Shown here: one piece after another, positions 4,711 through 42,237 of the stretch
Position numbering within the stretch: position 1 is the first letter of the stretch
Layout of the letters: every line of letters starts with the position of its first letter
Assembly: GCA_905220665.1 (NCBI GenBank)
Contig: CAJNAR010000146.1
Span: forward strand, 1-64,000
Direction: 5' to 3'
Source of the DNA: Albugo candida
Taxonomy: Eukaryota > Oomycota > Peronosporomycetes > Albuginales > Albuginaceae
DNA length: 64,000 nucleotides
Notes under the pieces: generated by a model
What the model saw: only the letters and a program-made list of their open reading frames with translations
Database searches by the model: none
What the model was told of the DNA's origin: nothing
Position numbers and translations under genes: made by a program

Positions 4711-7700
4711 ATGGATATGTTGAGAGAAGACAATTATTTCAGCTGGGAATTCAGTTCTCGAATGCAGCTGATGCGTAAGGGGTTGCTGGACCATATTGAC
4801 CCGGTAAAAACCCCAAGCGATGATGACAGCAACGCTGGGATTTGGAAGATCAATGACATGAAGGCGTTTGCGATCATTTCGAGCATGATCAGCCCCAACT
4901 TACAGTCTATGGTTAGATCAGCATGCAGTGCTGCTCAAGCATGGGACATCTTGAAGAACTTCTTCTTGAGGCGCTCCTTGCACAACAGGATCCAGAAGAA
5001 GCGGGAGTTACATGAGTTCAAGATGAAGAAAGGCGGATGCGTTATGGATCATTTTTTGAGGTTCGACGAGTTGTGCATGTCAATGCAACCAATAGGAGCG
5101 TCCATCGACTTGGATGAGCAGCTGGTTGTACTACTTGGAAGCATGTCAGAAGATTTCGACCAGATTATCAAGATCATGGAGAATGTACCAGGGATGGACA
5201 TGTTTCAAGCGAAGGAAATGCTTCTTCGCGAATCAGAAAGCATCAGTGCCAAGGAAAAGCATGGCATGGCACTCAAAGCGCAGTATAAGCGGCAAAGCAA
5301 AGGTCGAGCAAATAGGTCGAGCAAATAGGCCGAACAGGAATACAGCGAAGTTCGTGGGAAAGTGTTTCCGGTGTAACAAGTATGGGCACAAACAAGCGGA
5401 TTGTTGGAGAAGTAACAAGGCCGACAGCGAGGAAGCCCATGCATTCACAATTTTTGAAGAATCTCAAGCGAATTGGATTCTGGACAGTGGCGCAAGCAGT
5501 CACATGTGTCCCAACAAAATTGAATTTACCGACTTGCAAGCAATGAAGAAAAAGATTCCGATATCTGTTGCCAATGGAAGCAAGGTTTATGCAGTAGGAG
5601 TTGGAACCATCTTTGTGCGACTCAAGAACAACAAAAATATCAAGATTGATGATGTTTTGTACGTTCCCGGTCTCGAGCAAAAGCTACTCTCCGTATCTGC
5701 GCTAACGGAAAAAGGACTCCAGGTTGTCTTTCGGAATTTTACCTGTGAAATCAAAAGTGACAATCGAAACATCGTGGATATTCAACGTATTGGAAAGCTT
5801 TTCGTTCTCGAATGTGAAACACTTGAAGTCGCACATTTTGGTGGAGAGGCAGGTCAAGATGAAGACGTTCCGGTGGACGAATCCATTTGGCACGCAAGGT
5901 TTGGTCATATTTCGATCAAGAGAATGAAAAACATAAGGAATTATGTCAGTGGACTCAATTTGAAGACAAAATCAGGAATGGATTGTGAAGAGTCCGAAAT
6001 TTGTGAAGGGTGTATGAATGGAAAGTCATCTGTTCAGCCATTTAGATCATCTGCGTATGGAAAGGTAAAGACAAAAGCCTTGTTAGAAGTGGTTCACAGT
6101 GATGTCACTGGGCCGATGCGAGTGAAGTCTCAAGGTGGCGCGAAGTTTATGGTCACATTCATCGATGATTTTTCAAGATTCCTCCATGCCTATTTTATCC
6201 AAAGCAAGGGTGAAGTTTTCAGTAAATTTACCGAATTCAAAGCACTTGTCGAGAATCAGTTCGGAAAAAGGATCAAGTGTTTGCGTTCGGATAATGGTGG
6301 TGACTAAATCAACGACAAATTTGCCAACTTATGCAAAAATTCCGCAATCATACATCAAACCACGGTTCCATATTCGCCACAACAGAACGGACTCGCAGAA
6401 CGGATGAATCGGACACTTACGGAACGTGCGAGGTGCATGTTATCGCATATGCAAGTGGAGGAAAAATGGTGGGCAGAAGCTATGAACACAGCTGTGTACG
6501 TGACAAACAGAGTACCCTGTGCAGCAAATCAATTCAAAACCCCATTTGAAGTATGTTTCGGTCGGAAGCCAAGCGTCGCTCACTTTAAAGTGTTTGGAGC
6601 TCAAGGTTATGCACATATCGACAAATCCAAGAGATCCAAATTCGACAGCAAAGCTTACAAATGTATGTTTCTGGGCTATTTCGAAAACATTAAAGGGTAT
6701 CGTGTCTGGAATTTGGAAGCTCATCGTTTGGAAACAACACGTACAGCTAAATTTCAAGAACTGCAAAACTCAAAATATGTTGAAGTCGTATGCTGCGACA
6801 AATCCACGGACCAGTTAAAATCTATGGAAAACCAACATTATGAGGAGGAAGACATGCCTCTCGAAAGAGAGCATAACATCGATGATGCAATGGAAATAGA
6901 TGAAGAGTTTGACCAACAGGATGAACATCCAGGGGAAGATGATGTCAACATGGATCTTAATTCAGCTACGGAGATTGTTCCAAGGGGGAGATTGGATGGT
7001 TTCACTGGTTCTCCGACATTCGCACCATCTGGGCCCAATCACCTTCTCGAAAGTGAGCCGTCTCATTCAATCTTGCCATACGAAATTTCGGATGCCATTA
7101 TTCCAGTGGACATCGAAGAAACTCGACCACAGAAAAGATTTCGCATAGAACAAGAACAGGCGAATGCTGTTTTGGATTTACCATCAACGTACAAAGAGGC
7201 AATGCGGTCTCCGGATTCAGATGAATGGAAAAAGGCGATTCAACTAGAGCTCGAAGCACTCAAGGAAAAGGAGACTTGGATACTGACTTCAAAGACACCA
7301 CATATGAAGGTCATTGGAACAAAATGGGTTTTTACTCTAAAGCGGAATGAATTTGGTGAAGTTGAAAAGTACAAGGCAAGACTTGTCGCTTTGGGCTACC
7401 GACAAAAATATGGAGTGGATTATATGAACACATATGCGCCAGTTGCAAATATGAATTCCATTCGGGTTTACCTGGCGGCTTGTTGTCACCAAGGATTTCA
7501 TATTCAGCAATATGATGTCGACACCGCGTTTCTCAATGGGCATCTGGAGGAAGAAGTCGACATTCATCCACCGCGAGGTGTTGAAGCTCAGGCTAACGAT
7601 GTCTGTCTTCTGAAGCGAAGCTTATATGGTCTGAAGCAATCTGCAGCAACATGGTTTAAGACAATTTCACGAGTGTTTTTGGAAATGGGTTTCCGACACT

Positions 7701-8703
7701 GCAGAACAGACTCGTGCATATTTGTTCGTCAACGAGGAAATTCGGTGGTTTATATCGCCTTATATGTGGACGACATGTTAATAGGTGCAAAGACATTTGA
7801 GGAGATAAAAGCTATTTCCGACAAATTGTCAAGTAAGTTCAAGTTAAAAGATCTCGGAAAAGTCAAATTTATGCTGGGTATTCAAGTCGATTATGACCGA
7901 GAACAACGTTCAATGAAAATCTGTCAAACTTCAAACATCAATAAAATGGTCGAAAAGTTCAATCAAGTGGACGCCAAGCTCGTTTGGAACCCAAATGTTC
8001 AAGGCCAACTTTATCGACAATCGAAAAAGAAGATGAAAGAATGAAGTTTCGGCCTTATCGCTCCTTAGTTGGCTCACTATTGTATATTTCGAATGGAACA
8101 AGGCCAGATATTGCGTATTCAGTTGGGCAACTAAGTCGACATCTGGAACGGCCTAGTGAAGAGCATTGGAAGGCAGCGATAAGGGTCCTGCGGTATTTGA
8201 AGTCAACTAGTGATATGGGGATAAATTACACCGGCAGTGACAAATGTTTATGCGTTTGTGCATATAGTGATGCAGATTGGGCGAATAACAAGGAATCCAG
8301 GAGATCTGTATCCGGAATCATGGTAATGATAAATGGTGCGACCGTTATTTTCAATCCAAAAAAGATTCAGCAAAGTGTAGCCCTGAGTACGGCTGAGGCA
8401 GAGTTTATCGCCCTATCACTCTGTATGCAAGACGTTTTATGGCTGAAAAGCTTATTATGTGAACTCAAGGCAAATATTACTCAAAAGATCAAAATATTCG
8501 AGGACAATCAAAGTGCCATCGCAATCAAAGCAGAGCAAAACATATCGACATCCGTTATCATTTCATTCGAGATCATATAAAGGATGAAAAAATTGTGATC
8601 GAGTATATCGACTCCAGAAATCAGCTTGCCGATTTCTTGACCAAGCCTATTTCGACAAAGCAATTTCAGGATTTGGTTCGTCTGGCAAATATCAAGAATT
8701 GTG
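4711..8703 (+). pseudogene. Copia-1 gag-pol polyprotein, disrupted
   Basis: Gag runs from ATG 4711 to about 5300. A 13-bp tandem duplication (aggtcgagcaaat at 5301-5313 and 5314-5326) then shifts the frame. The next frame holds a zinc knuckle (CFRCNKYGHKQADC), protease motif WILDSGASSHM, the integrase region (CEGCMNGK, HSDVTGPM, IDDFSR) and, after an in-frame TAA at 6305-6307, SPQQNGLAERMN. Reverse transcriptase follows, with ALYVDDM near 7770. A second shift near 8030-8040 leads into RNase H (AYSDADWAN, STAEAEFIAL), and a third near 8530 leads to the C-terminal ADFLTKPIST segment. Despite near-identical LTRs the coding region therefore has four lesions and cannot make an intact polyprotein. 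Confidence 0.9.
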
Positions 8704-8716
8704 TGTCGTGGGGGAG

Positions 8717-8927
8717 TGTTGAAGAAAGTCGAACAAGTTCAGATAAAAACCGGATAAGATCGGAAGAGTCGGATTAGATCAGATCATTAGTAGCGCGGAA
8801 AGATGCGATAAGAAATAGGTTACTGATAGTATAGAGAAGCGATATAGAGAATGTGGTATAGGCTTAGACTATCTTTTTGAGAACTAAGGACCTACAAATA
8901 TAGATACTTTCCAATTTGACTACAACA
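8717..8927 (+). repeat. Copia-1 3' LTR
   Basis: It starts tgttgaagaaagtcga and ends ctacaaca, following the purine tract gtgggggag. The base after the terminal CA already belongs to the coding region of Copia-2. Confidence 0.92.
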
Positions 8928-8929
8928 CA

Positions 8930-10799
8930 TACGCTGAAGTTTCAGACAACAAAAACCAAACTTTTGCAAATAATCATGACATTGAGAGCGAGGATATTTC
9001 AGATGATGAAGGTCCAGAATTTCGGTTTCCGGCTGATCGTGTGCGTTCTGTCGAAGATGTGGCAATGGATGTCGATGAAGATGATAGAAATCCAAGAGGA
9101 GCGAACGATCACTCTATTATTGAGTATGATGACAGCCGGATGGAAATTGTCGACTTCCGTGACAATGAAGCATCACACGCCGGGGGCGAAGATATATCTA
9201 CATCACAAGCTGCTAGTAGTATTGTGCTGAGGGGGAGATTCGATCCGAATAGCGAACGTTATTTATTCGGCACCAGCGAACATTCCACTTCCCGACAACG
9301 CAGAGCTTTACCCCCTTCTGATGAAATAGTTCCGTATGGGAGGATTGAAAAATATACATTCGATGAAGACCATCGAGGATCGAAACGACTTCGCATTACT
9401 CAAGAGAACGCATGTATAGCAAATGGAAATCCAGAGACGTATTCCGAAGCTATTAATAGCCACGACAGCAAGTATTGGAAGGAAGCTGTCAAGTCTGAGC
9501 TGTCATCTTTGGAGTCGAAAGAAACATGGGAATTGACGAATGCACCGCCAAATAAACGAGTTATTGGTTGCAGATGGATTTTCACAATCAAACGAGATAT
9601 GCATGGAAAAATCCAGAGGTACAAAGCTCGTCTTGTTGCACAAGGTTTTGGTCAGATTCCAGATATCGATTACAAGGAAACTTATTCACCCGTTGTCAGT
9701 ATGAATTCAATCCGAGTCTTTTTAGCGTTATGCTGTCAATTGGGGTACGAGATGAACCAATACGATGTGGACACAGCTTTCTTGAATGGATACCTCGACG
9801 AAGAAATTTACATGTGGCCACCTCAAGGTTTTGAAACAGAGCCTGGAAAGGTATGCAAATTGAAAAGAAGTCTTTATGGTTTGAAGCAAGCATCAGCCAT
9901 ATGGTACAAAACTATTTCTGCAGTATTTGTCGATCAGCTCAAGTTCAAGCAATGTCTCTCCGGTGCTTGCATTTTTGTTCGGAAAGATCAAGAAGAATAT
10001 GTTTTCATTGCACTTTATTTGGATGATATGCTGATTGCAGCCAAATCAAAGACAACAATACACGCGATCCAGCATCATCTTTCAAGACTTTTTAACCTGA
10101 AAGATCTAGGTGAAGCACGATTTATTCTTGGAATGGAATTATCGTACATACCAAACAAAGAAACTTTAGTCTTATCAAAGCAGGCTTGTTTATTGAAATT
10201 GGTTGAAAAATTCAATCAAACCACCTCATCTCCTGCATACAACCCGAGCGTTGCTGGACAGAAAATGATCAAATATAACAAAAAGGATCAGAATATGGAA
10301 AGGCGACCATATCGTTCACTCATTGGATCATTGTTATATGTGGCGATGAGTACTCGACCTGATGTAGCATTCGCAGTTTGTCAACTCAGTCGATTCTTGG
10401 AAAATCCAAGCTCAGAGCATTGGGATGCAGGAATTCGGGTTTTACGTTACTTAAAAACTACTTCAAATTTTGGACTAAAGTGCAAAAGTGAAAAATCGAC
10501 TCTAAAAATTTCAGCATACAGTGACTCCGATTGGGCGAACAATAGCGATGATCGACGTTCAACTTCCGGTATAATGGTTTTTGTAAACATGATGCCAGTA
10601 GTGTTCAAATCTAGACTACAAAAGAACGTCGCGCTCAGTACAGCTGAAGCAGAGTACATGGCATTATTAATGTGTATTCAAGAAGTACTTTGGGTAAAAT
10701 CGCTACCAACTGGCAGATTATTTGACGAAGCCTATTGCGACCAAGCAATTTCAAAATCTTGTTCAGAAGTCCTGGATTGGAAATTCTAAGTCGAGGGGG
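8930..10799 (+). pseudogene. Copia-2 pol fragment with internal RNase H deletion
   Basis: One open frame (ATG 9041, open from 8930) covers the acidic integrase-RT linker, then reverse transcriptase with CRWIFTIKRD, YKARLVAQGFG, QYDVDTAFLNG, KRSLYGLKQAS and ALYLDDM, and the start of RNase H (AYSDSDWANN, STAEAEYMAL). After LWVKSL the frame jumps: the following DNA read one base over encodes LADYLTKPIATKQF, the extreme C-terminus of Copia pol. By comparison with Copia-3, about 190-200 bp that should encode the DNQS motif and the HIDIRHHF segment are deleted. The last ~30 residues of the open frame are therefore out-of-frame. The RT itself has no stop. Confidence 0.88.
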
Positions 10800-18007: not shown

Positions 18008-18161
18008 TGTTGGAAGATGTCATTTACCGACCGGTTTGTTTGAAATAGTGTGCGATGGTGTAGGTTGATTGCGGACAGGTTACATAGGAATTGCATATGA
18101 TAATAGTTAATAACAGTTTCACATTTGCACGAAAAAGAAAGGTGCACGGAGGTCTTTTATA
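18008..18161 (+). repeat. Copia-4 3' LTR
   Basis: It starts tgttggaagatgtcattt and ends cttttata. The SINE target duplication begins at its last base. Confidence 0.87.
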
Positions 18162-18181
18162 GTAGTATGTAGACGCAGGGG

Positions 18182-18201
18182 TCCGTACCCAGCTCAGTTG
18201 A
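18182..18201 (+). repeat. Left target-site duplication of the U6-SINE insertion
   Basis: The 20-bp sequence tccgtacccagctcagttga is identical to 18625-18644. It is the A-box region of the host SINE, so the duplication arose when the 423-bp element inserted there. Confidence 0.92.
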
Positions 18202-18624
18202 GGGTGTACGCCCGTAGTACTTGTATGTAGACACCGTTCTGTTACTACAGTTTGGTGGTTATCTACTCTATTCTAATCACTAGTATGTAACGCTCTGAAG
18301 AGCCCGGTCCAACTCCTGTACAGTTATTTTCTGGTGTCGTTGCCAGCGGTCTTGACACGTCCATATCTTCATTGAGTAGGTTGATATTTACGTGGAAGAA
18401 TCTTTGCATCCGCCGAGGGGCCCCACCGCAGCCCTTTTGCCACCGCCGGGATTCGAACCGGTGCACATATGGTCGGAGCACATGTGAACTAACCGCTAAG
18501 CCCCACGACGGGGTCGAAAATAAAGTGCGATACTTCTCTATTGATGCGTGGCATCCTTGCGCAGGGGCCATGCTAATCTTTTCTGTATCGTTCCAATTTT
18601 TTCGGATGACCACAGAGTGGTTCC
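18202..18624 (-). mobile_element. Chimeric U6 snRNA-SINE retrotransposed insertion (423 bp)
   Basis: Read on the minus strand, the insertion begins exactly with a U6 snRNA (18624 down to ~18517), passes through the U6 oligo-T end (ctttatttt) into a tRNA-like block (~18516-18440) with an A-box-like gggcttagcggttag and a perfect B box ggttcgaatcc, then a ~235-bp unique body and tail ending at 18202. A perfect 20-bp duplication flanks it. The structure fits a LINE-type machinery making a cDNA from SINE RNA and then jumping onto U6 RNA. This mechanism is established for U6-L1 chimeras in mammals; its application here is inference. Confidence 0.87.
18517..18624 (-). ncRNA. U6 snRNA retrocopy (5' half of the chimera)
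   Basis: The minus strand reads ggaaccactctgtgg (5' stem-loop) ... attggaacgatacag ... gattagcatggcccctgcg / caaggatgccacgc, followed by a T-rich end. It contains the core conserved in U6 of all eukaryotes: the AGC triad and the internal stem-loop region. The catalytic ACAGAGA box reads acagaaa, one substitution. At ~108 nt it is full length. Being inside a retrotransposed block, it is a pseudogene rather than a functional snRNA gene, though it shows what the host U6 looks like. Confidence 0.88.
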
Positions 18625-18644
18625 TCCGTACCCAGCTCAGTTGA
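18625..18644 (+). repeat. Right target-site duplication of the U6-SINE insertion
   Basis: A second identical copy of the 20-bp sequence at 18182-18201, after which the host SINE resumes with ttacgcacttgag. Confidence 0.92.
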
Positions 18645-18881
18645 TTACGCACTTGAGAGCACGGACCCCCTGCCGGAGGTCGTTAGTTCGATCCCCGGCA
18701 GTGTGGGCAGCGGTTTGAACCCACCTAAGTAATAAGCTTGGAAATATCTGCCTCCCTAGGTTTGAAGTCAGACTTAAGTGATACTCACACGGTCAGGGGC
18801 TCATGATAGGATAAGGAAGGCAGTTGAAAAATCAGATAAACAGTGTAATGAAATCCTTGACAAAGTAGTATCTAGACGCAG

Positions 18882-25983: not shown

Positions 25984-28900
25984 GCAGCAGCAGTTCGAGC
26001 AATGACGTTCTCAGGGACGACAACTACTTTTACTGGAAGTTCAACGCGTGCATGAGACTGGCAAGAAAGGGGATGCTGGACCATATCGACGGACCTGTAA
26101 ACGTCAAGAGCGAGGACGATACAGCGGTGGTAGTCTGGAGAGCGAACGACTTAAAGGCCTTTTCCACCTTGTCGATGACGCTCAGCACTCAATATCAGTC
26201 AATGATCCGAAATACGACATCGACGAGGCAGCTTTGGGATACATTAAAGGAGTTTTTTGTTTGGAAAAGTTTACACAATCGAGTGCAAGTTCGACGTCAG
26301 CTGCACGACTTCAAGATGGGAAGAGGGAGCAGCTTGATGGAACATATGATGAAGTTCGATGAACTAGCGATGAGCATGTCGTCTATCGGAGACGTGATGG
26401 ATGAGCAGGAAATGCTCGTGGTGCTTTTGGGTAGTCTGTCTGAAGACTATAAACACATCACACGAATCCTGGAAAAAATGCCTGAAATCGACTTGATGAG
26501 TGCGCGTGAAATTCTTCGCCGAGAGTGGGACAATATGCAGAAAAGGAATCAAATGAGCTTACACTGAAGGCAACAAGAGACGTGTTTTCGAAGATAAGAC
26601 CCAACAATGCTCGAATCAACAGGAGCGCGTTTCATGGGAAATGTTCAACTGTGGAAAGCGTGGACACAGACAAGCCGAATGTTTTCAACGAAGCAAAGAA
26701 AAAAGGACTTTCAAGCCGAAACGATCATGCGTTTATGGCAATTACTGCCCAAAAGAAGAATGACTGGTTTTTGGACAGCGTTGCGAGCAGTCATATGAGC
26801 TATGACAAGTCAGAATTTGTAGCACTGATGGATCTGGAAAGTCCAATCATAATATCAATCGCGAATGGAGCTACAGTCGACGCTGTTAGTACTGGTTCAA
26901 TACCGGTTAGTCTCAGCAATGGTGAACATGTCACCATTCATGACGTGTTGTACGTTCCAAAATTGGACCCACGGCTACTATCAATCCCCGCATTAGTGGC
27001 CCGTGGACTTAATGTTTCTTTCGACAACAACTGGTGCGAGATTAAGTCAGAGACCGAGACCATCATACGTATAAAGCGGAGTGGGAAGATGTACAAGCTG
27101 CATACACTCCCAAGGACACCAACCAAAACGGCATCGCCAGCATCTTACAGCGATGACAGTCAAGACTGGGAAAGATGGCATGCTCGTTTGGGTCATCTTC
27201 CATTGGATTAACTTGAACAAACGCAAAAATGTTCCACCGGAGTCCGAGTGAAAGAACATTCGATTCACGATGCCGATGACAAAGATGAGGTTTGCGCGGG
27301 TTGTGCAAAGGTAAAATCATCGGTGAGACCATTTCTCAAGGCAAAGGGCAATGATTTGAAGACAACGGAAGTGTTACAAATAGTTCACAGTGATCTCATG
27401 GGACCGATGAAAACAACATCAGCAGGTGGTTCTCGATATACATTGACGTTTATCGACGATTACTCACGATTGGTCAAAGTTTACTCTCTGCGGACAAAAT
27501 CGAAAGTGTTCGATTATTTCATACAATACAAAGCCATGATGGAACGCCAAACCAACAACAGGATCAATTGTAGCCGTACGGAATGCGGTACAGAGTTTGT
27601 GAACAGGCAGTTCGAGAAAGATTGTAGACGAAACGGGATAGTCCATCAGACAGCTGCCCCGTTCTCGCCGCAACAGAATGGTTTGGCGGAACGAATGAAC
27701 CGCACACTCATGGAAAGAGCTCGTGCAATGATGGAGCACAAGAATGTGGCAAAGGAGTGGTCGGCAGAAGCTTTCAATACCGCAGCATACATCACAAATC
27801 GCGTTGCAAACAGTCTTCGACCATACTCCACACCAATGGAAACTTGTTTCAAAGAAAAGCCAGTTTTCAGTCACCTCCGCGTTTTTGGATCTACTGGCTT
27901 TGCACATATCGACGAGCCGAAGCGATCTAAAGTAGACGCGAAGGCCTACTCATGCTTATTCTTGGGATGTGCCGACGACTCGAAAGCGTACCGGGTATTC
28001 AGCATATCGAACAAGCGAGTGGAGAGATCCCTAAGTATTCTCCTAACAGAAGTAAATCAGACCAAGTAGGTTCAAGTCGTTATCCAAAACCTTAAAATGA
28101 TTCCAAGACGGAACTCATTTGATGATGATCATCGTACTCCATGTGTGCGCATCGAGTCTCAGGAACCTCAATTTATGGAGACTGATCAAGCTGGCCAGCC
28201 ATACCAAAATCACCAACTTACAGTACCTGGACGATCCGACACACACTTGGTACCTCTGGATTACGACGCTCCCGGCCCTTCCTCCATGAAGGTGGATGAA
28301 GGTTATGGTCGAGAACATATCCCAGTACCTCCTAGCCAGGTTACTACTCAATGCCAACATCCAGAAAACGATATTGTGTCGAGAGGGAGAATCGAGATGG
28401 ATGACTTTTCACACAATCACGACACTTGTATCGCCCCCGACGTCACCGAGCATTACCAGCAAGTGGGTTCAGCGACGCTATTAGTGCATGTGCAGATGAA
28501 AATTAGCTCGATCATGATGAAGTCAATCGAGAGTCAAAGTGAGTTCGGCTTATGTCTGAGTAAGCAAACGCAGCCATTAAAAGCCCTACAACATATCAGG
28601 AAGCTTTGCAAAGCGGTGAAGCTGTCCAGTGGAAAGATGCGATGGCATCAGAGTTCAAGTCATTGGATGGAAGGAAGACATGGAAAAGAGTAGATCGTCC
28701 AAACGACCAAAAGGTGATCAGGTGTAAATGGGTGTTTGCAATCAAGCGAGACGAATATGGTGCAATTCAGAGGTATAAGGCCCTACTGGTTGCGCATGGA
28801 TTTCAACAAACAGCTAGAGTCGACTAAAAGGACACGTACGCTCCGGTTGCAAGCACTGATTCGATCAGAGTATCCTCAGTGTGTGTACAACTTGGTTACG

Positions 28901-40710: not shown

Positions 40711-42237
40711 CTATCTGTGTGCGTTCATGAAATTCAGGTGAAAGTCCGACATTTTTGTTATCACTTCGTTGACTTCGTCTTCAGGTGGTAGTATCGTCGA
40801 ACGAAAGTGAAATGTTCCATCTTTTTGTCCAAAACCCGATCCTGGGACAACAACAATTCCTGTCTTCTCCAGCATTTGAATACAATAGTAAGTATCTGGA
40901 GCCATGTTACATCCACTGGCGGCCTGAACCGCTTTTTCGGAAAGACGAATTCGAGGAAAAGTATATAAAGCCCCTTCAGTTGCATTGCAAGTGACGCCCT
41001 CGAGCTTGTTAAATGCAGCGACAAGTTTCAGTGCACGCCGCTTTAACGAAGCAAGAATTGAGTCTCGTTGATGGCAATATCTCTGATAGGAGGCGTCTCC
41101 TTTTTTTGGAGGATTAACCATTAAACCCACCATAAGTTGTCCCTCGATATTAGAACAAAGGTTGATCGACATCAACTTGTACAATTGCTCGCGAGCACAT
41201 TCACTGATGTTGACTAGTTCCATGTAGCCTCCTCGTCGCCCGCATTCTCCAGTGAACCCTTTTGACGTGGAATGAAAGGAGATCAGCTCAACATTGTTGT
41301 AAGCTGCACCAAGATCCCTTAGAACTTTCTTGAAAGAAAGAAATTTTTTATCCGCTGCATAAACATTCTCTTGATAGACTTCGTCGGCAAGAATAAGGAG
41401 GTTGTGTTTTTGACAGAATTGTATCACCTCTTCAATATTTTTCTTTGAAAGACATTGGCCAGTAGGATTGCCAGGGTTGATGATGGCAACTGCTCGTACA
41501 ACTTTTCCATTCTTGCGTGCTTCATTATGTGCTCGTTCGATCTCGTGTATACTAAGCCCCCAGTTTTCCTCTTCATCCAGGTAATAACCAGCAAGTGTAC
41601 CACCATTGATCGCTATCGCAGCTGAATAAAGCGGATACTGAGGTATAGGTGCCATTATGACATCATTATTATCTCTGATAAGTGCTAAGAGCGCATTCTG
41701 AACCGCTTGACTAGCTCCATCGGTAAGAAAGATGGTATTGGGATCAGCTGAATGACCATCACGTTCTTCGAGGAAACGAGCAACTTCCTCTCTGACTATA
41801 TCAGCACCAAGGCTGTGACCGTAAGCTCCAGTACCACCTGGAATGTTGCGCAAGTAATTTCTGGCCCTTTGAATCGCATCGACTTGAAACAAACTTTGTG
41901 CTTCCTGAGTATCCACAAATCCTGGTACATTCACTAGAGCAAGCACTTGACGATGAAATTCAATCGGTTCTTGCTTTAATATTTGTGGGTTGCCAATATT
42001 GCATGGAATTATTTTGTCGAAGGGGAACGAGCGATCACCTTGTTGTAATCTTTGTTCATACTCAACCGAGCGCTGAACAATAGGACCACGTACAGCGTAC
42101 TCTGCCCGAACAATACGTTGGTTGATTAACTCTTTTGTGAGCACTGTCATAGTACGATTATGTTCTAACTGAACACGAGGAAGCGAACAAGCGATGAAAC
42201 GCACCCTCTTTTCAAAATGCCTCATTATGCTTCTCAA
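40711..42237 (-). CDS. Alanine aminotransferase
   Basis: A 508-residue PLP enzyme that interconverts alanine and 2-oxoglutarate with pyruvate and glutamate. Seen: PCNIGNPQ, GAYGHSLGADIVREEVA, FLTDGASQAVQ, INPGNPTGQCLS, LADEVYQENVY, and the PLP lysine in FHSTSKGFTGECGRRGGYME (Lys about 326), which is diagnostic of alanine aminotransferases. Length matches the family. The first ~35 residues are basic and lack acids (MRSIMRHFEKRVRFIACSLP), consistent with a mitochondrial presequence; an internal Met at residue 30 could give a cytosolic form (inference). It is intronless. Its start is 95 bp from the PP5 start on the other strand, so the two genes probably share a bidirectional promoter. Confidence 0.95.
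   Translation of the reverse strand: MRSIMRHFEKRVRFIACSLPRVQLEHNRTMTVLTKELINQRIVRAEYAVRGPIVQRSVEYEQRLQQGDRSFPFDKIIPCNIGNPQILKQEPIEFHRQVLALVNVPGFVDTQEAQSLFQVDAIQRARNYLRNIPGGTGAYGHSLGADIVREEVARFLEERDGHSADPNTIFLTDGASQAVQNALLALIRDNNDVIMAPIPQYPLYSAAIAINGGTLAGYYLDEEENWGLSIHEIERAHNEARKNGKVVRAVAIINPGNPTGQCLSKKNIEEVIQFCQKHNLLILADEVYQENVYAADKKFLSFKKVLRDLGAAYNNVELISFHSTSKGFTGECGRRGGYMELVNISECAREQLYKLMSINLCSNIEGQLMVGLMVNPPKKGDASYQRYCHQRDSILASLKRRALKLVAAFNKLEGVTCNATEGALYTFPRIRLSEKAVQAASGCNMAPDTYYCIQMLEKTGIVVVPGSGFGQKDGTFHFRSTILPPEDEVNEVITKMSDFHLNFMNAHR

What the first reader, a model, noticed from the sequence alone, without database searches (positions are those of the whole stretch)
18182..18644. Full-length U6 snRNA fused to a tRNA-type SINE, inserted with a perfect 20-bp duplication inside another SINE
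The minus strand of 18202-18624 begins exactly at a U6 5' end (ggaaccactctgtgg) and carries the conserved U6 core (gattagcatggcccctgcg, caaggatg). It passes through a T-run at the U6 3' end into a tRNA-like block with a perfect B box (ggttcgaatcc), then a unique tail. Both sides carry tccgtacccagctcagttga. This is a chimeric retrotransposition product or a U6-headed SINE family. U6-L1 chimeras are known in mammals; I know of no described U6-SINE chimera in an oomycete-like genome (inference, not searched). If multicopy with the same junction, it would be a new composite SINE class.
Basis: partly seen in the sequence, partly recalled or inferred. Interest (0 to 1): 0.92.

Follow-up and report, generated by a model that had tools for sequence, protein, structure and literature searches.

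The report
U6-SINE chimera made by template jumping
In this oomycete genome a jumping-gene copying enzyme appears twice to have run off the end of a short mobile element and gone straight on to copy cellular RNAs (U6, and once a mature tRNA as well) before the DNA was inserted; such fusions are known in other organisms, but these carry unusually clear traces of how they form.

Summary
Minus strand 18202-18624 is a full-length U6 copy (103 nt; Rfam 90.1 bits), a 6-nt linker and a complete 314-bp tRNA-type SINE, flanked by a perfect 20-bp duplication inside another SINE with its own duplication. It is not a U6-headed SINE family. Searches found three U6 loci in the genome (Albugo sp., inferred): one gene-like locus without the SINE, this chimera, and a second chimera at C143:164052 with a different junction. 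Of 76 SINE 5' ends examined, only these two carry a recognised RNA head. Their SINE bodies share no private change, so they arose independently. The second is tripartite: U6 + tRNA-Leu(CAA) + SINE. Its tRNA part ends in CCA, which neither matching gene encodes, begins at nt 27, next to G26 (m2,2G26 in fission-yeast tRNA-LeuCAA), and is preceded by a 7-nt snapback palindrome. [quoted passage not shown] The SINE, and an L1-group LINE in tandem arrays, insert at the A box of tRNA genes and tRNA-like SINE heads; several tRNA genes stay intact. U6-SINE and tripartite chimeras are published in vertebrates and fungi: a new variant of a known kind.

The parts
18161..18178 (+). 5' target-site duplication of the host element (SINE-B)
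   Evidence: 17 of 18 identical to 18864-18881
18179..18863 (+). host SINE-B with tRNA-like head, interrupted at its A-box region by the chimera
   Evidence: begins gggtccgtacccagctcag..., ends ...ccttgacaa before its duplication; similar sequence flanks other SINE-A copies (24 of 62 by text rule)
18182..18201 (+). 20-bp target-site duplication, copy at the SINE-A 3' end
   Evidence: exact match to 18625-18644
18202..18515 (-). SINE-A, complete, 314 bp, 5.4% from the family consensus
18439..18511 (-). tRNA-like head of SINE-A (called tRNA-Arg CCG by ARAGORN), includes B box ggttcgaatcc
18516..18521 (-). 6-nt linker ATTTTC between U6 and SINE-A (untemplated, or altered U6 oligo-U tail)
   Evidence: SINE 5' end fixed by the other copies
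18522..18624 (-). U6 snRNA retrocopy, full-length, 4 substitutions in 103 nt from the gene-like U6 at C145, including ACAGAGA to ACAGAAA
18625..18644 (+). 20-bp target-site duplication, copy at the U6 5' end
18864..18881 (+). 3' target-site duplication of the host SINE-B

Best explanation
One retrotransposition event. A LINE-encoded reverse transcriptase primed on the nicked A-box region of a tRNA-like sequence (the head of SINE-B) and copied SINE-A RNA to its exact 5' end. It then jumped to the 3' oligo-U end of a U6 snRNA, copied it to its exact 5' end and completed integration, leaving a 20-bp duplication. The likely enzyme comes from the L1-group LINE family found at the same sites. The second chimera shows a longer chain: SINE-A, then a mature tRNA-Leu from its CCA to nt 27 (stopped at G26, probably m2,2G26), then a cDNA snapback of 7 nt, then U6. 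Shown: structure, duplications, independence, CCA absent from the two matching genes, truncation point, palindrome. Inferred: which enzyme did it, the modification, jumping rather than ligation.
For: A perfect 20-bp duplication flanks the whole U6+SINE unit; the second chimera has a similar flanking repeat with mismatches. In 46 of 62 distinct SINE copies the duplication lies 0-5 nt from the SINE 5' end; in the two U6 copies it lies 109 and 174 nt away, beyond U6. Both jumps leave at SINE nt 1 and both U6 copies begin at the same nt. The tRNA-Leu(CAA) genes at C166 and C145 match the chimera over 53 of 55 and 51 of 55 nt and the match ends exactly before CCA. The copy starts at gene nt 28 = position 27 by my numbering. 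The palindrome GAACACAGTAGA/TCTACTGTGTTC extends the 5-bp anticodon stem by 7 nt that the gene lacks. Published data: tRNALeuCAA of S. pombe carries m2,2G26 (PMC4697793, passages) and m2,2G interferes with reverse transcription (PMC12140624, passages). LINE: APE endonuclease plus RT, its first 803 residues aligned to human L1 ORF2p at E 4.4e-59; its 3' end abuts the same target upstream of 18 of 62 SINE copies by text rule.
Against: No reads, no empty site in another isolate and no enzyme assay. SINE-A and the LINE share only about 17 similar terminal nt (compared by eye; the BLAST found no body similarity), so the LINE-SINE partnership rests mainly on shared target and shared arrays. The 6-nt linker ATTTTC is not explained. 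Of the two tRNA differences, A58 to G lies on the usual m1A site, but at this copy's divergence it may be an ordinary later mutation; the other, T60 to A, has no such reading. m2,2G26 has not been shown in Albugo. The chimera in the window itself has no mark that separates jumping from ligation; that evidence comes from the second one.
Confidence: 0.85

Rival explanations
1. RNA ligation before retrotransposition: U6, whose 3' end can carry a cyclic phosphate, is ligated by an RtcB-like enzyme to the SINE (or tRNA fragment) 5' end, and the chimeric RNA is then reverse transcribed.
For: RNA ligation via RtcB is listed as one route for LINE-1 chimeras in PMC13174262 (passages). It would give the same sense-orientation structure for the chimera in the window.
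Against: In the second chimera the upstream partner of the SINE is a tRNA ending in CCA, normally 3'-OH and not an RtcB substrate (recalled). The snapback palindrome is simplest from a free cDNA 3' end. Both SINE copies start at the native 5' nt, expected to be a triphosphate, not 5'-OH (recalled).
Confidence: 0.12
2. A propagating U6-headed SINE family with the U6-SINE junction as a stable composite.
For: Two U6-SINE loci exist.
Against: The two junctions differ (6-nt linker versus a 70-nt insert containing tRNA-Leu). The SINE bodies are 8.0% apart, about the sum of their 5.4% and 3.2% divergence from consensus, and share 1 change that 14 of 51 aligned copies carry. The U6 copies share no mutation.
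Confidence: 0.01
3. Two successive insertions: U6 pseudogene and SINE landed separately at the same A box.
For: The target is hit repeatedly; tandem SINE insertions exist (C136) and each regenerates the target.
Against: Stacked insertions leave the 20-bp target between elements (C136: 127 bp + 20 bp repeats). No target copy lies between U6 and SINE in either chimera.
Confidence: 0.03
4. Assembly or cloning artefact.
For: Only one assembly is available.
Against: The same duplication rule holds at 46 of 62 copies on many contigs. U6 and SINE parts both carry copy-specific mutations. A second chimera lies on another contig.
Confidence: 0.02

Closest known systems
snRNA pseudogenes of group IV (U6/retrotransposon chimeras) of PMC4476161: U6/L1, U6/Mon-1, U6/AnolisSINE2, U6/Alu
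   Same: U6 in sense orientation 5' of a non-LTR-type element, target duplications round the whole, template switching as the proposed mechanism
   Different: Oomycete host; the element is a SINE specific for tRNA-type targets; both jumps leave at the exact SINE 5' end
Tripartite chimeras WEIRD-MgSINE-MGL of Magnaporthe and B2-U6-L1 of mouse (PMC2104539)
   Same: Two successive template switches in one insertion flanked by direct repeats
   Different: The second Albugo chimera includes a mature tRNA copied from its CCA to nt 27 plus a snapback palindrome; the Magnaporthe one has 5'-truncated SINE and LINE parts
tRNA/LINE-1 chimeras of human (PMC13174262, n = 21)
   Same: Part of a tRNA joined to a retroelement
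   Different: Those are mostly half-length (about nt 1-37), predominantly antisense and ascribed to twin priming; here the tRNA is sense, 3' part, ending in CCA
Target-specific elements of multicopy RNA genes: Keno and Utopia (U2), Mutsu (5S), Dewa (tRNA-Leu spacer), Dada DNA transposons (tRNA and snRNA genes, some at the A box), TRE5-A (near tRNA genes) (PMC3706591, PMC4640811, passages)
   Same: Insertion into or by multicopy RNA genes; two papers name tRNA genes among the targets of non-LTR retrotransposons (PMC4640811, PMC8869645, passages)
   Different: Here an L1-group LINE and a SINE insert antisense at the A box of several tRNA types; the duplication covers the tRNA 5' end so the gene stays intact. 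Whether one of the cited tRNA-targeting elements does the same was not checked

Membership tests
U6/retroelement chimera by template switching | U6 copy joined in sense to a non-LTR-type element | tested here: met
U6/retroelement chimera by template switching | one target duplication flanks the whole, none at the internal junction | tested here: met
   perfect 20 bp in the window; with mismatches in the second
U6/retroelement chimera by template switching | U6 copied from its 3' end, not internally | tested here: met
   full-length to ...CACTTT in both
U6/retroelement chimera by template switching | formation by the reverse transcriptase itself | not testable with these tools
   needs an enzyme assay
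propagating U6-headed SINE family | several copies sharing the same U6-SINE junction | tested here: not met
tRNA-type SINE | multicopy, Pol III-type head with B box, target duplications | tested here: met
   transcription itself not tested
L1-group LINE as mobiliser | N-terminal APE endonuclease and RT in one open frame, similar to L1 ORF2p | tested here: met
L1-group LINE as mobiliser | mobilises SINE-A through a shared 3' tail | tested here: inconclusive
   about 17 terminal nt alike by eye, no body similarity; shared target and arrays
Tx1 clade of target-specific LINEs | placement in the RT tree | not tested
   no reference set built

The most novel reading that the evidence does not exclude
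The reverse transcriptase of a tRNA-gene-targeting L1-group LINE often finishes a short SINE template and relays end to end onto mature small RNAs with free 3' ends (CCA of tRNA, oligo-U of U6), about 2 of 76 SINE 5' ends here. It is a natural counterpart of the two-template relay used in tRNA sequencing, and the insertions preserve footprints of RNA modification (stop at m2,2G26, possible misreading at m1A58). This would be the entry route by which new RNA heads are offered to SINEs.
Probability: 0.45. Interest if true: 0.7.

Novelty: new variant of a known kind. Interest (0 to 1): 0.5.

Why it matters
How SINEs gain new RNA heads is an old question with little direct evidence (my view). Here two independent events are caught with the RNA ends that took part intact. 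The tRNA one carries marks (CCA, stop next to G26, snapback) that point to mature modified RNA and to jumping during cDNA synthesis. The tRNA-targeting, tRNA-sparing LINE/SINE pair also gives a tractable system to test this, and shows how SINE heads come to be called tRNA genes.

Tried and rejected
U6-headed SINE family: rejected. Gene-like U6 running into the SINE: rejected. Separate insertions: rejected, no target copy at the junction. More chimeras: 62 distinct SINE copies plus 14 further 5' ends of 75 bases each gave only the two. A recheck (places) found no copy counted twice; two pairs among the 62 (L037/L053, L067/L068) lie at different places with near-identical flanks, one further copy (L094) had been merged with its twin L092, and of the 14 extra ends L117 has the same 75 bases as the flank of L013 and L123 lies inside the stretch of L050. 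So 76 ends are not 76 independent insertions. The 14 were judged by eye from the upstream flank only. Not examined: 3'-tail matches for which no upstream sequence was fetched.

Of the 62, 14 besides the two chimeras failed the near-duplication test. They are old, truncated or rearranged copies by my reading, four abutting an inverted LINE-like end (L045, L095, L104, L107) and one (L050) beside an inverted LINE 3' stretch. For L089 and L105 the alignment stopped early, so the test looked at the wrong bases and 46 is a lower bound. None of the 14 showed a recognised RNA head; L104 (score 12 at 81 nt) and L050 (score 13 at 774 nt) gave partial matches further away and were not resolved. The heads were judged by eye and by the U6 search only; no Rfam search was run on these flanks.

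BLAST of SINE-A against the LINE 3' region showed no shared body. The SINE-snRNA-head paper PMC4494074 is not held and was not read; that SINEs with U1/U2 heads exist is taken from PMC13174262 (passage). A literature search on mature-tRNA/CCA chimeras failed on its terms and was not repeated.

Full report
What is there. Reading the minus strand from 18624, the window holds a U6 copy of 103 nt (18624-18522), six bases ATTTTC (18521-18516) and a 314-bp SINE (18515-18202), bounded by TCCGTACCCAGCTCAGTTGA on both sides. Rfam scores the U6 at 90.1 bits over the full model. The surrounding SINE-B has its own 18-bp duplication, 17 of 18 identical. SINE-B was not searched on its own; I know it from flanks of other copies.

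The organism. The alanine aminotransferase encoded at 40711-42237 is 88% identical to an Albugo laibachii protein and 65-74% to the other named oomycete proteins down to row P0027 of the list, so this is an Albugo species by inference; A. candida is my guess, not shown. The assembly has 38.9 Mb in 196 contigs.

U6 in this genome. DNA and Rfam searches give the same three loci. C145:455690 has TATA-like sequence upstream and TTTTT at its end, with no SINE, so it is the gene-like copy. The other two are this chimera and C143:164052 on the minus strand. Both chimeric copies are altered in core motifs: ACAGAGA to ACAGAAA here, the AGC triad to AGA in C143 (the roles of these motifs are recalled). 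They look like pseudogenes.

The SINE. The family (SINE-A) has 52 5'-end and 81 3'-tail pattern matches (L101 among the latter has another body). I analysed 62 distinct copies: 46 have the target duplication within 0-5 nt of the 5' end. Of 51 aligned long copies, 2 equal the consensus and 9 are within 0.6%, so activity was recent. Copies usually end in ...CCCTTAACTGAG and lie antisense at the A box of tRNA genes or tRNA-like heads. By upstream flank the 62 fall into 24 SINE-B, 18 LINE 3' end, 5 tRNA-gene-like, 3 tandem SINE-A, 4 inverted LINE-like end, 2 U6 and 6 other (by simple text rules). Intact tRNA-Asn, -Ile, -Cys and -Pro genes lie within 0-2 nt of a SINE 5' end: the duplication restores the tRNA 5' end, so the gene survives.

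The LINE. RT hits stand in tandem about 7.1 kb apart, for example four on C91 (which scored 150 of 694 candidates). One copy has a 1399-codon open frame with APE endonuclease and RT; its first 803 residues align to human L1 ORF2p (E 4.4e-59). Relatives at 47-54% identity over much of the protein occur in named oomycete sources such as Globisporangium splendens and Peronospora matthiolae (which listed 64 proteins). Its 3' end...GACACCTTCAACTGAG, meets the same target. That it moves SINE-A is inferred.

Independence. The two chimeric SINE bodies are 5.4% and 3.2% from consensus and 8.0% from each other. They share one difference, which 14 of 51 copies carry. The junctions differ. No RNA head was seen in 14 more 5' ends. 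So these are two separate events in 76 ends examined (not all independent), not a family.

The second chimera. Between its U6 (ending CACTTTT) and its SINE lie 70 nt: A + GAACACA + 55 nt of tRNA-Leu(CAA) + CCA + AAAA. The two matching genes (53 of 55 and 51 of 55 nt) end before CCA and continue with TTA and AAA. The copy starts at gene nt 28, which is position 27 by my numbering, so it stops next to G26. The 7 nt GAACACA are the reverse complement of the bases beyond the anticodon stem, giving a 12-bp perfect hairpin. The simplest reading is that the cDNA stopped at a modified G26, folded back on the stem, was extended 7 nt and then moved to U6. Fission-yeast tRNALeuCAA carries m2,2G26 (PMC4697793, passages) and m2,2G impedes reverse transcription (PMC12140624, passages). 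One of two substitutions falls at A58, a usual m1A position; the other at T60 does not; this is weak evidence.

Against what is known. [quoted passage not shown] PMC2104539 (passages) shows tripartite chimeras in Magnaporthe and mouse. PMC13174262 (abstract and passages) lists 21 tRNA/LINE-1 chimeras, mostly half-length and antisense. So the finding in the window is ordinary in kind. I did not see in print the oomycete case, the mature-tRNA link with CCA, stop and snapback, or an L1-group LINE/SINE pair inserting at the A box of several tRNA types. That rests on searches, which cover open-licence papers only and whose longer lists I saw in part (25 of 57, 20 of 52 and 10 of 174 papers). Against my novelty: PMC4640811 and PMC8869645 (passages) state that some non-LTR retrotransposons target tRNA genes, and PMC3706591 (passages) names Dewa, TRE5-A and A-box-targeting Dada transposons. 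I did not follow the references behind the first statement.

Verdict. Observation confirmed, family reading rejected, single-event chimera strongly supported, template jumping likely.

Noticed in passing
L028 (C143:161500-166500), U6 start at C143:164052 minus: Second, tripartite chimera U6 + tRNA-Leu(CAA) with CCA + SINE-A, with snapback palindrome and a flanking duplication with some mismatches.
   Followed up: yes
L007/L081, L009/L066, L010/L065, L046/L080: Intact tRNA-Cys, -Ile, -Asn and -Pro genes lie within 0-2 nt of SINE-A 5' ends: tRNA-targeting, tRNA-sparing insertion.
   Followed up: partly
C91, C77, C150, C193 and others: Tandem arrays of L1-group LINE copies about 7.1 kb apart, at the same kind of target where seen.
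   Followed up: partly
C136:5785-6392 (L070): Two identically 5'-truncated SINE-A copies stacked next to a full copy at 147-bp spacing, each with the 20-bp target.
   Followed up: partly
L045, L095, L104, L107: SINE-A copies starting at nt 5 whose upstream side is an inverted LINE-like end, without a clear duplication.
   Followed up: no
L101 (C162:211700-212380): SINE-A-like 3' tail on an unrelated body; possibly another element sharing the tail.
   Followed up: no
window 18439-18511: ARAGORN calls the SINE head a tRNA-Arg(CCG) gene; tRNA counts in this genome may be inflated by SINE heads.
   Followed up: no
window 5114-10789 and 27248-28069: Open frames that look like Copia-type retrotransposon pieces (by eye).
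   Followed up: no
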